Positions 4,877 to 31,382 of a stretch of 64,000 bases of DNA are shown one piece after another; the first letter of the stretch is position 1; each line of letters starts with the position of its first letter. Position numbers and translations under genes: made by a program. The notes under the pieces are model-generated. The model had not been told where the DNA came from. It made no database searches and worked only from the letters and a program-made list of their open reading frames with translations. Source of the DNA: Phymorhynchus buccinoides (Eukaryota > Mollusca > Gastropoda > Neogastropoda > Raphitomidae); the NCBI GenBank assembly GCA_017654935.2, contig CM065710.1, forward strand, positions 29,178,197-29,242,196. Reading direction: 5' to 3'.

Positions 4877-5460
4877 TAATCTCAAGCACGACTATTTGCA
4901 GATGACTGTATTGTCTACAGACAGATTAAGAGCACAGATGACTGCAAGATACTGCAAGAGGATCTCAACACCCTATCCACGTGGGAAAAACGCTGGGGCA
5001 TGGAATTCCACCCCCAAAAATGCAATGCAATGACATGCTCCAAGTCCCGCAAACCTATCGCCTTCAAATACCACCTGAAGGGCCACTGCCTAGAAGAAAC
5101 GTCAAGCGCTAAATACCTAGGAGTGGATATTAGCAACGACCTGAACTGGAAACCCCATGTCAACAGGGTCACCAAAAAAGCAAACAGTATGGTAGGGTTC
5201 CTACAAAGAAATTTGAAAACAGCAAACAGAACAACAAAAACAAACGCATACAACACCTTAGTGCGCCCACATCTGGAATACTGTTCAACAGTATGGAACC
5301 CTCACACCACAGAACTAGCAAAGAAGATCGAAGCTGTTCAGAGAAGAGCGGCTAGATACGTGAACAACTGCTACGATACCACCAGTAGCGTCACAGCCAT
5401 GCTCTCCAAGCTTCAATGGGAATCACTTGAGGCAAGAAGATCAAAACATCAGGCCACCCT
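4877..5460 (+). pseudogene. LINE reverse transcriptase fragment (Jockey/CR1-like)
   Basis: One frame, open from about 4877 just after an in-frame TAA, encodes the second half of a non-LTR reverse transcriptase. Visible motifs are LFADDCIVYR (the active-site x-ADD box), KYLGVDISNDLNWKPHV, LVRPHLEYCSTVWNP and the K-EAVQRRAARYV block, in the order usual for Jockey/CR1-type elements. The endonuclease domain and the fingers/palm region upstream of the ADD box are absent. Near 5460 the coding sequence stops abruptly and joins family D repeat DNA, which supplies the stop codon at 5480-5482. It is a dead, 5'-truncated and 3'-truncated copy. In a live element this enzyme copies element RNA at a nicked target. 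Confidence 0.9.
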
Positions 5461-5461
5461 A

Positions 5462-5551
5462 GCTGGTGGAGTTGTACCGTAGTGTTCAAATGCTTCGGCT
5501 GTTGGGACTAGAGTAGTTGGGATGATCCCTGGAGTCTTTAAGCCAGGATAA
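5462..5551 (-). repeat. Fragment of dispersed repeat family D
   Basis: The TTGTACCGTAGTGTTC, GCTTCGGCTGTTGGGA and GATGATCCCTGGAGTCTTTA blocks match the fuller copies at 37498-37790 and 51295-51572. It is fused directly to the LINE fragment. From 5552 to 5836 I see only a short C run (about 5760-5770). Confidence 0.7.
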
Positions 5552-6209: not shown

Positions 6210-6408
6210 AACTTCCATATGAGTATGACTAGTAGTAAGCAGCTTTGCATTCTTCCCGCTTTTAACGATCTCAACCATGTATCAATCCAACAAAACTGAA
6301 AGGACATTGAAGAGGCCGCGAGGCCTAGTTGTCCTCAAATACCTGACCTGACCTAAAAAAATAAAAAACCAAAAACATCTAGCGCTGTGTCTCCTTACAA
6401 GCCGAAAT

Positions 6409-8457
6409 TTATGTTACTCACCATTCTTCCTACTAACTCCACAGCACAGCTCATTGTCTTTGTAGTTCACAGGGTTGTTACAACCCACACCCATTGTTTT
6501 ACTACAATTCCCATTTTACTCACCATTCTTCATACTTCACAGTACAGTTCATTGTCTTTGTAGTTCACAGGGTTGTTACAACCCACACCCATTGTTTTGC
6601 TACGATTCCCATTTTACTCACCATTCTTTCCCCACAGCACAGCTCATTGTCTTTGTAGTTCACAGGCTTGTTACAACCCACACCCATTGTTTACTATTCC
6701 CATTTTACTCACCATTCTTCCTACTCCACAGCACAGCTCATTGTCTTTGTAGTTCACAGGGTTGTTACAACCCACACCCATTGTTTACTATTCCCATTTT
6801 ACTCACCATTCTCCCCCCACAGTACAGCTCATTGTCTTTGTAGTTCACAGGGTTGTTACAACCCACACCCATTGCTTACTATTCCCATTTTGCTCACCAT
6901 TCTTCCTACTCCACAGCACAGCTCATTGTCTTTGTAGTTCACAGGGTTGTTACAACCCACACCCATTGTTTACTATTCCCATTTTGCTCACCATTCTTCC
7001 TACTCCACAGCACAGCTCATTGTCTTTGTAGTTCACAGGGTTGTTACAACCCACACCCATTGTTTACTATTCCCATTTTGCTCACCATTCTTCCTACTCC
7101 ACAGCACAGCTCATTGTCTTTGTAGTTCACAGGCTTGTTACAACCCACACCCATTGTTTACTATTCCCATTTTACTCACCATTCTTCCTACTCCACAGCA
7201 CAGCTCATTGTCTTTGTAGTTCACAGGGTTGTTACAACCCACACCCATTGCTTACTATTCCCATTTTGCTCACCATTCTTCCTACTCCACAGCACAGCTC
7301 ATTGTCTTTGTAGTTCACAGGGTTGTTACAACCCACACCCATTGCTTACTATTCCCATTTTGCTCACCATTCTTCCTACTCCACAGCACAGCTCATTGTC
7401 TTTGTAGTTCACAGGGTTGCTACAACCCACACCCATTGTTTTACTACGATTCCCATTTTACTCAACATTCTTCCTACTTCACAGTACAGCTCAATGTCTT
7501 TGTAGTTCACAGGGTTGTTACAACGCACACCCATTGTTTTACTACCTTTCCCATTTTACTTAGAATTCTTTCTCTATTGTCTTAGTAGTTCACAGAGTTG
7601 TTACAACCCACTGCCTTACCATTCCCATTTTACTCACCATTCTTCCTACTCCACAGTAAAGCTCGTTGTCGCTGTAGTTGACAGGGTTGTTAGAACCCAT
7701 ACCCAATTGTTTACTATTCCCATTTTACTCACCATTCTCCCCCCACAGTACAGCTCATTGTCTTCGTAGTTCACAGGGTTGCTACAACCCACACCCATTG
7801 TTTCACCATTCCATTTTACTCACCATTCTCCCCCCACAGGACAGCTAATTGTCTTTGTAGTTCACAGGGTTGTCACAACCCATACCCAATTGTTTACAAT
7901 TCCCATTTTACTCACCATTCTTTCCCCACAGTACAGCTCATTGTCTTCGTAGTTCACAGGGTTGTTACAACCCACACCCATTGTTTCACCATTCCATTTT
8001 ACTCACCATTCTTTCCCCACAGAACAGCTCATTGTCTTCGTAGTTCACAGGGTTGTTACAACTCACACCCATTGTTTCACCATTCCATTTTACTCACTAT
8101 TCTCCCCCCACAGTACAGCTCATTGTCTTCGTAGTTCACAGGGTTGTTACAACTCACACCCATTGTTTCACCATTCCATTTTACTCACCATTCTCCCCCC
8201 ACATTACAGCTCATTGTCTTCGTAGTTCACAGGGTTGTTACAACTCACACCCATTGTTTCACCATTCCATTTTACTCACCATTCTCCCCCCACAGTACAG
8301 CTCATTGTCTTTGTAGTTCACAGGGTTGCTACAACCCACACCCATTGCTTTATAGCTATTTCCATTTTACTCACCATTCTTTCTCAGTTATCTTTGTAGT
8401 TGACAGGGTTGTTACAACGCACACCCATTGTTTTCATACAGTTCCCATTTTACTCAC
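6409..8457 (-). repeat. Exon/intron-junction-derived tandem satellite (~22 units of 91-97 bp)
   Basis: About 22 head-to-tail units abut the AA15 exon. Read on the minus strand, each unit contains a copy of the last ~60 bp of that exon (GTTGTAACAACCCTGTGAAC, GACAATGAGCTGT..TGTGG, AGAATG), then the splice donor GTGAGTAAAATGG and ~30 bp of intron. Roughly 20 of 22 units keep GTGAG(T/C); those near 7460 and 7556 have lost it. Units nearest the exon are mostly 91 bp and carry exon-like TACTGTGGGGGG. Middle units are 94 bp with TGCTGTGGAGTAGG, and the most distal are 96-97 bp. Neither 91 nor 94 is a multiple of three, so the array is not one reading frame. Short open frames across it are by-products. 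It lies inside intron 1. Confidence 0.95.
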
Positions 8458-8688
8458 CATTCTCCCCCCACAGTACAGCTCGTTGTCGTTGTAGTTGACA
8501 GGGTTGTTAAAACCCAGACGCCACATGCTGTTCCGGGCAGGGGGGTCCATCATTCGACCGTGTCCCGTGACGACACCCAGCCGTGACGTCATCACCATCA
8601 ATGACGTCATCACCCCTAAGATGGCGGCGCCGAAGGGACTGCACGTCTTTGAGACATGCCGGTGTAGGGGTGGAAGTCGGTGTTCCAT
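8458..8688 (-). CDS. First coding exon of an AA15 lytic polysaccharide monooxygenase (partial gene)
   Basis: AA15 enzymes are secreted copper monooxygenases that cleave chitin or cellulose chains oxidatively. The exon encodes 77 residues from ATG at 8686-8688: a basic start, a hydrophobic stretch (about 23-41) ending VVTG, then HGRMMDPPARNSMWR and the NNPVNYNDNELYCGG motif. His43 would become mature residue 1, the first ligand of the copper-binding histidine brace. The second His and the remaining cysteines must lie in later exons. The exon ends at AATG|GTGAGT (donor 8457-8452, phase 0). I chose ATG 8688 as the first in-frame ATG; 8610 is a shorter alternative giving a 16-residue signal. No later exon is visible down to position 1, so intron 1 exceeds 8.4 kb. 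The intron begins with the satellite described above. The AA15 assignment is strong; substrate is unknown. Confidence 0.9.
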
Positions 8689-10270
8689 TGTGGAATAGCA
8701 ATAAAGTGGTTTCAATTTCAAGATGGATTGCGTGTGTCCTGGGGTTTTTTTGTGTTTTTTTTTCTTAGATTCGCTTCATTCAACAAATGTTGTTATTGTC
8801 AAACTTGTTGTTTTTCAGCAAAAACAACTTTGAAATCATCGCCAACACAATAACTTTTTTTTTTAAACTAGTCAGATTTGCACATACATCGAAATGACTC
8901 CAATCCTTTCATCTTCAAATCATCTTCATCATCATCATTGTCCTTTGAAAGGTAAAAACCTTCGCAAAAAAATAAATAAAAAACGGTGGGCATCAGCAAA
9001 AAACGCAATATAACAAAATGTCAGATTTAGTTTCTCGATCAGTCCAACGCTGTTTATACACCACACAAGATTTCTTTTTTTAGTCCAAGTGAATAAAAAG
9101 AAGAAAGTCTATGAACAAAATGTTGAATTATGCACCTCTAACTCCCAGATGGAAACTTAGGCTCAGGCTTCCAACGCTGTCTGCATTCTGTAACTCTTTG
9201 ATTAGTGAGTCACTACTATTGGTAGTACTGGCGCATGCGCGTTGTCGACAAAAAGGTATGCTGTTTCAGTGTGCTACGCGGAGATTGTCAGACCTTACCG
9301 GTTCATCTTCTCATTGCAGATTGCTGTACACTATACCCTTTGGCAAAATGTTAGTATTTGTTTTTTAACTGCAGGAGAAAAACAAACAACTTATGCACCG
9401 GTTCGTTGAAGTCAGTTCTTGTCGATTATTGTGACATGGACGATTTGACCAGATAATTCAGTTCTTTTTTACCCTTTTTTTTAACGAGCAGTCTGCGTTA
9501 ATAAATTCGTTAATCCAGTCACAATAGATGGTTAGATGATTGTGTCATAAGTTTTCAATCGATCTTTCATCATAGCAACAGCTAAAAAAACCAAAAACAT
9601 AAGAAACAATATCGTTGATTGAAATTCCTTGTCCGTTTCACTTGTTGCAAGAGAAGTCGAAAGTACCAGAGCTTAGATCGTTTTTCTGTTTCTTGATGTT
9701 TTGGTGTGTTTTTCTCAAAATCGAATGAAGTATGCCTTACGTGGAAATCGCACTTGCTGGTAGGGACAGAGTGGGGTTGCCTCATCTTTGCGAGGCCTTT
9801 TATGCTCCTCCTTCTGTCCATGGCTTGAGTGGTCCTCCCTTTCCAAACGTTTCCACGCCATAATCCTCCCCCCCCCCCCCCTCCCTCTCTCCTGTTTCTC
9901 TCTTCACCCGCCTTTCCTTTTCTTTTCTGTCCTCCTCCCATGTTTTTCTTCCTCTCTTGGCTGTTGGCATAATCCCTGAGTGACTCCCGAGGCTATTAAA
10001 AGACACTTTCTCCTCCTTGCGCAAACGCGAGTTCGCCGTTTTTAGACCCTCCCCAAACCAAACAGTTTATTTCCTCGCAAAAATCCCGTTTTTGACTACA
10101 GAAACGAGCACTTCCTATAATATAACGTGTTGATCATAACTCCAAGATTAGCTACAGATTCTATTTTGAAGTCATTTTCTGCCAGTTTTGGCTTTGTCGT
10201 GGTTTTTGTTGTTGTTGTTGATGATTATTTTGCTAAATAGTTTCCCTTTTGTGTTGACTTTCTGACGAGA
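8689..10270. other. Presumed 5' flank of the AA15 gene; no recognised features
   Basis: This is mixed AT-rich sequence upstream (on the minus strand) of the AA15 exon. I see no convincing TATA box, additional exon or known repeat. A CT/C-rich stretch lies near 9864-9905. The 119-codon and 85-codon frames here have no recognisable protein character. Confidence 0.5.
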
Positions 10271-22033: not shown

Positions 22034-22457
22034 AAGGGTGAAAATCCGTTTAACGTCCTCCGGTCGGAAACAGACACATAATTATGGGACATTAGTAGAC
22101 TATAAAAATGGCGGGAACGATCCTGGAGGTAATGCCCGGAGGCAGTGCAACTCCAGGAAAGTCCCGATTTTTTAACGATACAGACGTATTGCTAGTCTCC
22201 CGCGTGACAGGCGGGAATACTGACCAATATACGGTGATACTGACCACCACTTTAGTACAACAGAACTATCAAAAAGATGATGGTGGTTGTTCAAAGAAAG
22301 AAGATACTACTGAGGACCTTCAAAGTAGAATGCCAACAACAGCACCTGGTGTTCCCACCCAGGCGGTCACCCATCCAAGTACTGACCAGGCCCGACGTTG
22401 CTTAACTTGGGCGATCGGACGAGAACCGGTGTTTTCAACGTGGTATGAACGTTGACC
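22034..22457 (-). mobile_element. 5S rRNA-derived SINE (SINE3-type), full-length copy
   Basis: On the minus strand, positions 22457 to about 22331 are clearly a 5S rRNA copy. Recognisable blocks are CATACCACGTTGAAAACACC, TTCTCGTCCGATCGCC, AAGTTAAGCAACG (box A region, 22408-22396) and TGGATGGGTGACCGCC (box C region, 22377-22362). It departs from normal 5S at both ends and by a small insertion after CCGCCTGGG, so it is not a functional 5S gene. A ~130-bp linker follows, then the core found in other copies (CTGTATCGTTAAAAAATCGG, TTGCACTGCCTCCGGGCAT), and the element ends at GACGTTAAACGGATTTTCAC. The intact internal promoter would let RNA polymerase III transcribe it. Confidence 0.85.
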
Positions 22458-29329: not shown

Positions 29330-31382
29330 CCGAAGAAAGACTGAAAATGATTCGCAGACTTTTGTTCCAAAAGAAAGACTGAAAATGATTTCATTTTAAA
29401 GTTGTGTCCCCCCCAAGAAGATTGAGAGAATGAATCGCAGAATTTTGTCCCAACAAAGATTGAAAATAAATGCAGACTATTGTCCCAATAAAGATTGAAA
29501 ATGAATGCAGACTATTGTCCAAACAAAGATTGAAAATGAATGCAGACTATTGTCCAAAGATTGAAAATGAATGCAGACTATTGTCCAAACAAAGATTGAA
29601 AATGAATGCAGACTATTGTCCAAACAAAGATTGAAAATGAATGCAGACTATTGTCCAAAGATTGAAAATGAATGCAGACTATTGTCCAAACAAAGATTGA
29701 AAATGAATGCAGACTATTGTCCAAACAAAGATTGAAAATAAATGCAGACTATTGTCCCAATAAAGATTGAAAATGAATGCAGACTATTGTCCAAACAAAG
29801 ATTGAAAATGAATGCAGACTATTGTCCAAAGATTGAAAATGAATGCAGACTATTGTCCAAAGATTGAAAATGAATGCAGACTATTGTCCCAATAAAGATT
29901 GAAAATGAATGCAGACTATTGTCCCAATAAAGATTGAAAATGAATGCAGACTATTGTCCAAACAAAGATTGAAAATGAATGCAGACTTTTGTCCAAAGAT
30001 TGAAAATGAATGCAGACTATTGTCCAAAAAGATTGAAAATGAATGCAGACTATTGTCCCAACAAAGATTGAAAATGAATGCAGACTATTGTCCAAAGATT
30101 GAAAATGAATGCAGACTATTGTCCAAAGATTGAAAATGAATGCAGACTATTGTCCCAACAAAGACTGAAAATGAATGCAGACTATTGTCCCAACAAAGAT
30201 TGAAAATAAATGCAGACTATTGTCCCAATAAAGATTGAAAATGAATGCAGACTTTTGTCCAAACAAAGATTGAAAATGAATGCAGACTATTGTCCAAAGA
30301 TTGAAAATGAATGCAGACTATTGTCCAAAGATTGAAAATGAATGCAGACTATTGTCCCAACAAAGATTGAAAATGAATGCAGACTATTGTCCCAACAAAG
30401 ATTGAAAATGAATGCAGACTTTTGTCCAAAGATTGAAAATGAATGCAGACTATTGTCCAAACAAAGATTGAAAATGAATGCAGACTATTGTCCCAACAAA
30501 GATTGAAAATGAATGCAGACTATTGTCCAAACAAAGATTGAAAATGAATGCAGACTATTGTCCCAACAAAGATTGAAAATGAATGCAGACTATTGTCCAA
30601 ACAAAGATTGAAAATGAATGCAGACTTTTGTCCAAAGATTGAAAATGAATGCAGACTATTGTCCAAAGATTGAAAATGAATGCAGACTATTGTCCCAACA
30701 AAGATTGAAAATGAATGCAGACTATTGTCCAAAGATTGAAAATGAATGCAGACTATTGTCCAAAGATTGAAAATGAATGCAGACTATTGTCCAAAGATTG
30801 AAAATGAATGCAGACTATTGTCCCAACAAAGATTGAAAATGAATGCAGACTATTGTCCCAACAAAGATTGAAAATGAATGCAGACTTTTGTCCAAAGATT
30901 GAAAATGAATGCAGACTTTTGTCCAAACAAAGATTGAAAATGAATGCAGACTTTTGTCCCAATAAAGATTGAAAATGAATGCAGACTATTGTCCAAACAA
31001 AGATTGAAAATAAATGCAGACTATTGTCCCAACAAAGATTGAAAATGAATGCAGACTTTTGTCCAAACAAAGATTGAAAATGAATGCAGACTATTGTCCC
31101 AATAAAGATTGAAAATGAATGCAGACTTTTGTCCAAACAAAGATTGAAAATGAATGCAGACTATTGTCCCAACAAAGATTGAAAATGAATGCAGACTTTT
31201 GTCCAAAGATTGAAAATGAATGCAGACTATTGTCCCAACAAAGATTGAAAATGAATGCAGACTATTGTCCCAATAAAGATTGAAAATGAATGCAGACTAT
31301 TGTCCCAATAAAGATTGAAAATGAATGCAGACTTTTGTCCCAACAAAGATTGAAAATGAATGCAGACTATTGTCCAAAGATT
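29330..31382. repeat. 2-kb minisatellite of 31-bp and 35-bp units (~60 copies)
   Basis: The unit is ATTGAAAATGAATGCAGACT then ATTGTCCAAAG (31 bp) or ATTGTCC(A/C)AACAAAG (35 bp). The two lengths differ by a 4-bp CAAA-type slip. The first three or four units are diverged and the rest are nearly identical. Units are not multiples of three together, and the frames across it are artefacts. There are no unique spacers, so it is not a CRISPR array. Confidence 0.95.

What the first reader, a model, noticed from the sequence alone, without database searches (positions are those of the whole stretch)
6409..8688. A satellite grown out of an exon-intron junction, carrying about 20 copies of the gene's own 5' splice site
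Seen directly: about 22 tandem units, each a copy of the last ~60 bp of the AA15 exon plus ~30 bp of intron 1, start exactly at that exon's donor. About 20 keep GTGAG(T/C) in the context AATG|GTGAGTAAAATGG. Unit similarity to the exon falls with distance. Inference: the array grew directionally from the junction by unequal exchange or slippage. In the pre-mRNA it would present a ladder of decoy donors, possibly sequestering U1 snRNP, shifting the donor choice, or making circular or extended first exons. I know of no described system of this kind.
Basis: partly seen in the sequence, partly recalled or inferred. Interest (0 to 1): 0.92.

Follow-up and report, generated by a model that had tools for sequence, protein, structure and literature searches.

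The report
Copied splice-junction repeat beside snail gene
Next to one exon of an intact-looking sugar-cutting-enzyme gene, probably in a snail, the end of that exon and the start of its intron have been copied 22 times in a row, a known kind of repeat called a 'mirage' that multiplies splice signals, most likely by accident rather than as a working device.

Summary
22 tandem units (window 6422-8457, minus strand) each join the last ~58 nt of an AA15 LPMO exon (8458-8688) to the first ~33-40 nt of its intron; 20 of 22 keep GTGAG[T/C]. The gene looks intact: exons 2-4 lie off-window on the same contig, and the exon's own donor restores the AA15 frame. The exon is ancestral, the array derived.

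The kind is known: amphioxus 'mirages', duplicated exon-intron boundaries reported not to disturb splicing (PMC3087553, PMC3902484, passages), and a human donor-supplying minisatellite (IFI6, seen only as cited). One genome search found the unit only here. Similar arrays stand at other junctions, a second AA15 gene and a sugar transporter: 3 of 62 exon matches examined, about the background rate of tandem arrays. Best reading: a mirage grown by local duplication, donors as passengers. New member of a known kind.

The parts
8458..8688 (-). AA15 LPMO exon 1 (mature N terminus HGRMMDPPARNSMWRLGFNNPVNYNDNELYCGGRM); authentic donor ATG|GTGAGT at 8458|8457.
   Evidence: 5MSZ E 1.8e-6; 155 proteins at E <= 1e-3, 120 listed; spliced domain 5.4e-52; exon 2 found at G000:C31:29169122 downward, phase 0
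6422..8457 (-). mirage array: 22 tandem copies of [first ~33-40 nt of intron 1 + last ~58 nt of exon 1]
   Evidence: all 13 matches of a two-unit DNA query lie at this locus
6409..6421 (-). truncated last intron copy (GTGAGTAACATAA) after which the array stops
8434..8436 (-). TGA, 8th codon after the authentic donor; the stop met if any array donor is used
   Evidence: 22 of 22 array junctions
7558..7566 (-). array junction with donor lost (ATT|CTAAGT)
7460..7468 (-). array junction with donor lost (ATG|TTGAGT)
6409..8474 (+). the same units read on the other strand: a ladder of acceptor-like sites (CTCAC branch-like, pyrimidine tract, mostly CACAG); no evidence of use
   Evidence: 26 of the window's 61 plus-strand acceptor-like sites fall in 6380-8720 by a simple rule

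Best explanation
It is a 'mirage': a minisatellite seeded by a short tandem duplication across the donor of exon 1 of an intact-looking AA15 LPMO gene. It then expanded and was partly homogenised by slippage, unequal exchange or gene conversion (inference from the pattern). The array lies at the start of intron 1 (17,531 bp) and is removed with it (inference). The copied donors are passengers. The functional mRNA must use the exon's own donor, since every array donor leads to the same early stop. The genome is rich in tandem arrays, and other exon edges have been caught in arrays the same way.
For: Structure. Exons 1-4 with GT/AG borders joining into one AA15 domain. Exon ancestral, array derived. 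Local turnover: neighbour similarity p 0.0004, u13=u14 and u16=u17. Donor columns evolve like the rest. Coding constraint relaxed in units: a stop appears in 6 of 22 (u1, u3, u7, u10, u21, u22) in a fixed 57-nt reading, though in some of these length changes shift that frame. Unit found only at this locus. Second mirage at exon 2 of a C3 paralogue, ~19 units, AAG|GTA kept in 6 of 19 by my reading. Third at a Sugar_tr acceptor on C8, 10 extra copies spanning the acceptor and at least 12 nt of exon. Points lying in arrays with 4+ extra copies: 22 of 481 random points in the window; 25 of 576 in fetched loci, 16 of 544 without the two mirage loci. Exon-match edges: 4 of 124 by the mechanical test, 3 of 124 after dropping L063. 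Precedent that such arrays need not disturb splicing: passages of PMC3087553 and PMC3902484.
Against: No RNA was available, so donor use is inferred. 14 array donors equal the native one in computed U1 pairing (-10.8 kcal/mol), and 0 of 2657 GT sites in window 9001-30000, both strands, reach that. 20 of 22 donors keep GTGAG[T/C] here while only 6 of 19 keep AAG|GTA in the C3 array, which a selectionist could read as maintenance here. A passage of PMC6002489 says that the intron-proximal site is favoured among comparable donors for reasons not known, so undisturbed splicing is not guaranteed. Length polymorphism, expected of a minisatellite, could not be tested.
Confidence: 0.8

Rival explanations
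1. The donor ladder works: it binds U1 snRNPs in cis and diverts part of the transcripts to array donors. Those carry the stop at 8434-8436 and are degraded or make a short fragment, so copy number tunes AA15 output (a poison extension), or it protects the long intron from premature polyadenylation.
For: 14 array donors with native-strength U1 pairing and none so strong in the other 15.5 kb of intron 1, of which 5,000 bases read N; stop 59 nt or more upstream of every array donor; long intron with 7 AATAAA motifs in its readable part. A pseudo-5' splice site trapping U1 has a published case (PMC6002489, passages).
Against: No excess conservation of donor columns; two donors lost and six weakened in U1 pairing; the C3 array kept AAG|GTA in 6 of 19; amphioxus mirages reported not to disturb splicing.
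Confidence: 0.12
2. The plus strand matters: the array is a ladder of acceptors (branch site, pyrimidine tract, CAG) for an antisense transcript ending at AATAAA 8700.
For: 26 of 61 plus-strand acceptor-like sites of the window lie in 6380-8720; AATAAA at 8700.
Against: The plus-strand signals are the complement of conserved AA15 codons and the donor, so they come for free; one plus-strand array ORF has no homologue at E <= 1e-3 among 409 candidates; no RNA.
Confidence: 0.04
3. The AA15 exon is a dead fragment and the array merely decays with it.
For: Exon 2 is absent from the window; the signal peptide start is unclear; the gene's end beyond exon 4 was not worked out.
Against: Exons 2, 3 and 4 follow on the same strand with GT/AG borders, joining into an LPMO domain (Pfam 79.3 bits, 5MSZ 5.4e-52) with both copper histidines aligned.
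Confidence: 0.04

Closest known systems
Mirages of amphioxus (Adh3, globins BflGb6 and BflGb9, TnC, PGBD5); PMC3087553 and PMC3902484, passages seen
   Same: Minisatellite-like tandem copies of an exon-intron boundary beside the authentic junction of a working gene; many copies keep splice signals; concerted evolution inside the cluster; donor or acceptor side may be affected.
   Different: Here probably a gastropod, not a cephalochordate; 22 copies against 6 and 3 in the BflGb6 haplotypes; unit 74-102 nt; the donor of the first coding exon; 14 of 22 copies keep a native-strength donor. Splicing and length polymorphism not tested here.
Human IFI6 (6-16, G1P3) minisatellite with multiple splice donors (Turri, Cuin & Porter 1995; seen only as a citation in PMC2572611 and PMC4526556)
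   Same: A tandem repeat that supplies several donors to one exon.
   Different: A passage of PMC4526556 states that two downstream repeat units serve as donors in IFI6; here any array donor gives the same early stop.
Intron gain by internal tandem duplication (Rogers 1989 and Gao & Lynch 2009, as cited in a passage of PMC3087553)
   Same: Duplication that includes splice-site sequence and could seed new introns.
   Different: No new intron is shown here.

Membership tests
Mirage (minisatellite-like duplication of an exon-intron boundary) | tandem units that span an exon-intron boundary and contain both parts | tested here: met
   22 units, ~58 nt exon + ~33-40 nt intron, u1 and u10 shorter in the exon part
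Mirage (minisatellite-like duplication of an exon-intron boundary) | adjacent to the authentic junction of an intact gene | tested here: met
   exons 1-4 with GT/AG borders, exons 1 and 2 join in phase 0; AA15 domain 5.4e-52; end of the gene not determined
Mirage (minisatellite-like duplication of an exon-intron boundary) | many, not all, copies keep splice signals | tested here: met
   20 of 22
Mirage (minisatellite-like duplication of an exon-intron boundary) | concerted evolution within the cluster | tested here: met
   neighbour similarity p 0.0004; two identical neighbouring pairs
Mirage (minisatellite-like duplication of an exon-intron boundary) | length instability between haplotypes | not testable with these tools
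   one assembly only
Mirage (minisatellite-like duplication of an exon-intron boundary) | regular splicing not disturbed | not testable with these tools
   no RNA data
AA15 LPMO (the host gene) | N-terminal His and second His of the copper brace, AA15 by sequence | tested here: met
   alignment to 5MSZ covers His1, and the His at chain position 91 faces the His of TANH; PF03067 79.3 bits
AA15 LPMO (the host gene) | secretion signal ahead of His1 | tested here: inconclusive
   hydrophobic stretch ahead of HGR, partly alike in P0001; start codon uncertain; no signal-peptide program was run
IFI6-type donor minisatellite | repeat-borne donors are used in mRNA | not testable with these tools
   no RNA data; any such use gives an early stop

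The most novel reading that the evidence does not exclude
In this lineage exon-intron junctions are caught in tandem arrays so often that the genome carries very many mirages. Some of them, like this one with 14 donors of native U1 strength, act as copy-number-variable splicing rheostats: the share of transcripts lost to the stop-bearing donors depends on array length. Individuals would then differ in enzyme output, and new exons and introns would be fed into the genome.
Probability: 0.12. Interest if true: 0.8.

Novelty: new member of a known kind. Interest (0 to 1): 0.45.

Why it matters
It gives a natural series of 15 donors of equal computed U1 pairing (the native one and 14 copies) within about 2 kb, in a gene where use of the wrong one is easy to see, so rules of donor competition could be read from ordinary RNA data. 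Similar arrays at two other junctions of the same genome suggest that mirages, which the searches of the held library showed by that name only in amphioxus, also recur in another phylum. That would bear on how introns and alternative exons arise.

Tried and rejected
Gradient of similarity away from the exon: not found. Selection on donor bases: not found. Array as a dispersed satellite: not supported; all 13 matches of one two-unit DNA query lie at this locus (one candidate region was scored, and the tool warns that no match does not prove rarity). Array first and exon second: rejected. Pseudogene: disfavoured. Circular or internal array exons: no strong minus-strand acceptor by a simple rule. 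Array translations in the protein collection: none at E <= 1e-3 in two searches, one per strand. Viral contigs: none. A palindrome GGGTTGTAACAACCC in 9 of 22 units was considered as an instability motif and left open. The trypsin exon L063 passes the mechanical copy test with 20 copies, but its 29-bp units hold no acceptor AG and no exon part, so it was not counted as a mirage. L012 has one extra copy 801 bp away, apparently a duplicated exon piece, and was not counted. The window gene was ascertained by the finding itself; without it the mirage count is 2 of 61. The edges tested are ends of protein matches, not curated exon borders: for the sugar-transporter exon L056 the tested point lay about 65 bases upstream of the true acceptor, inside the array, so I recounted at the true junction. 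Several exon matches are near-identical copies (for example L004 and L005 on C14), so the counts are not independent. My note says 16 of 23 junctions at -10.8 kcal/mol; the output shows 15 of 23, and that is used here.

Full report
What is there. On the minus strand, window 8458-8688 is the first coding exon of an AA15 LPMO, and directly behind its donor stand 22 tandem units down to 6422. Each unit repeats the first ~33-40 nt of intron 1 and about the last 58 nt of the exon; u1 and u10 lack part of the exon piece. Unit lengths are 74-102 nt, mostly 91 or 94. After the last donor only GTGAGTAACATAA resembles the unit, then other sequence follows. 20 of 22 array junctions keep GTGAG[T/C] (15 and 5); two have lost the GT. 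In computed pairing with the U1 5' end (recalled sequence), 14 array donors equal the native one (-10.8 kcal/mol), five GTGAGC sites give -8.1, one ATA|GTGAGT gives -7.3 and the two lost ones about -4. None of 2657 other GT sites in window 9001-30000, both strands, reaches -10.8, nor does any in the other 15.5 kb of intron 1, of which 5,000 bases read N.

The gene. The exon alone matches 5MSZ, an AA15 structure, at E 1.8e-6; alone it does not pass the Pfam cut-off (13.9 bits against 23). In the window's own genome (G000, 2.12 Gb; the window is C31:29178197-29242196) the next exons lie on the same strand: exon 2 at 29169122-29168958, exon 3 at 29166864-29166537 and exon 4 from 29165733, all with GT/AG borders; what follows exon 4 was not worked out. 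Intron 1 is 17,531 bp. The first two exons join in phase 0 as CGGRM|IQWIRNGGKCGVCGD, which lines up with the named snail protein P0002, CGGRITQWARNKGKCGVCGD. The spliced domain scores 5.4e-52 to 5MSZ and 79.3 bits to PF03067, and it reads straight from the joined exons. Both copper histidines are aligned; their numbers, His1 and His91, come from passages of PMC5823890. So the host gene looks intact and the donor at 8458 is the true one.

Direction of descent. The exon came first. Seven paralogue exons of the same genome (L002-L008) have their donor two codons after CGG, in phase 0, and none has this array within the 1.5 kb fetched on each side. Where the units share amino-acid changes, the exon keeps the family residue: F or Y in 115 of 115 aligned homologues where 21 of 22 units read C and one S; N in 115 of 115 where 15 units read K, 5 read E, one S and one a stop (115 of the 120 listed homologues had the motif). 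A related exon in the protein collection, P0001, reads on past the same point for 28 residues without array sequence.

How the array behaves. Similarity to the exon does not fall with distance (rho -0.05, p 0.83). Neighbouring units are more alike than in shuffled order (p 0.0004 from 5000 shuffles) and u13=u14, u16=u17. Exon part u9 is among the most exon-like and u10 shares the deletion of u1, which suggests one larger block duplication (inference). Changes per column on a tree of the units are 0.78 for the nine donor positions and 0.71 for the rest; 60 of 87 nine-column windows are as conserved or more. There is therefore no sign of selection on the donors.

What it would do in RNA. Any array donor carries the reading frame into a TGA at 8434-8436, 59 to 2012 nt ahead of the donor used. 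The product would be 84 residues counted from 8688, and the mRNA a likely decay target (established knowledge of NMD; not tested). On the minus strand a simple rule finds no strong acceptor in the array, so array exons or circles are unlikely; on the plus strand the same units look like acceptors, 26 of the window's 61. The two faces come from the same letters, and there is no evidence of antisense use.

How common it is. One two-unit DNA query found the unit only here (13 of 13 matches); a second such query did not complete. But the same kind of event is found at other exon edges. A second AA15 gene on C3 has about 19 units, 15 of 19 spacings between 59 and 70 nt, behind the donor of exon 2 (8138058), with AAG|GTA kept in 6 of 19 by my reading (the script's count of 7 of 19 includes one out of register). 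Its native donor is itself weak in the same pairing measure (-5.6). A sugar-transporter exon on C8 has 10 extra copies that span its acceptor and at least 12 nt of exon. Whether those two genes are intact was not tested. Two more edges have one or two extra copies: an AA15 acceptor on C24 and a trypsin acceptor on C1. Examined in all: 33 AA15 exon hits (42 merged hits less 9 that are units of this array), 9 of 9 scored Sugar_tr matches (829 first-look candidates) and 20 of 132 trypsin matches, chosen by me and with shorter flanks. That gives 3 of 62 exon matches, or 3 of 124 edges, with four or more extra junction copies; the mechanical test alone gives 4 of 124, the fourth being L063, whose units hold no exon part. 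The window gene is among them by choice; without it the count is 2 of 61. Random points lie in arrays of that depth in 22 of 481 cases in the window and 25 of 576 in the fetched loci, 16 of 544 without the two mirage loci. Exon edges are therefore not visibly enriched; a genome full of minisatellites catches some junctions.

What is known. [quoted passage not shown] A passage of PMC3902484 adds troponin C and PGBD5. A human minisatellite that supplies several splice donors (Turri, Cuin & Porter 1995) is cited in PMC2572611 and PMC4526556; the paper itself was not held. So the kind is known; this is a new member, with many copies and many strong donors. The host is probably a gastropod (inference from P0002, Candidula unifasciata, second among the homologues). 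My searches of the held library showed mirages by that name only in amphioxus; I opened only some of the listed papers, and the library lacks most subscription papers.

Verdict. Real, well explained, and of moderate interest: a mirage whose donors are most likely passengers, but which offers a natural test of donor competition, in a genome where such arrays recur.

Noticed in passing
L042:1060-2570 (G000:C3:8138059-~8139570): A second, independent mirage: about 19 copies of the exon 2 donor region of an AA15 paralogue, most copies with changed donors. No exon 3 of that gene was among the C3 matches.
   Followed up: partly
L056 (G000:C8, upstream of the exon at 34131518-34131745, minus): A third mirage in an unrelated sugar-transporter gene, on the acceptor side: 10 extra copies spanning the acceptor and exon start, period near 134.
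   Followed up: partly
L026 (G000:C24) and L066 (G000:C1): One and two diverged extra copies of an acceptor plus exon start upstream of an AA15 exon and a trypsin exon.
   Followed up: partly
L007:1464-1494 (G000:C24): A 7-bp tandem repeat (4.4 copies) starts within the donor of another AA15 paralogue.
   Followed up: no
window 6400-8720, + strand: The array's other strand is a ladder of well-formed acceptor-like sites, and AATAAA lies at 8700, so an antisense terminal exon would look good on paper.
   Followed up: partly
window 4880-5482, +: Reverse transcriptase fragment (PF00078, E 4e-8) of a retroelement in intron 1, about 1 kb from the array's far end.
   Followed up: partly
window 29418-31375: A 35-bp minisatellite of about 58 copies, also fitted by a 101-bp period.
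   Followed up: no
window 22334-22456, -: A 5S rRNA match (Rfam RF00001, 86.3 bits), full length.
   Followed up: no
P0001 (protein collection): Just past the donor, the unspliced reading holds GGHGRLLYIQG, alike to the exon's own GHGRLMDP; this might be another junction duplication or chance.
   Followed up: no
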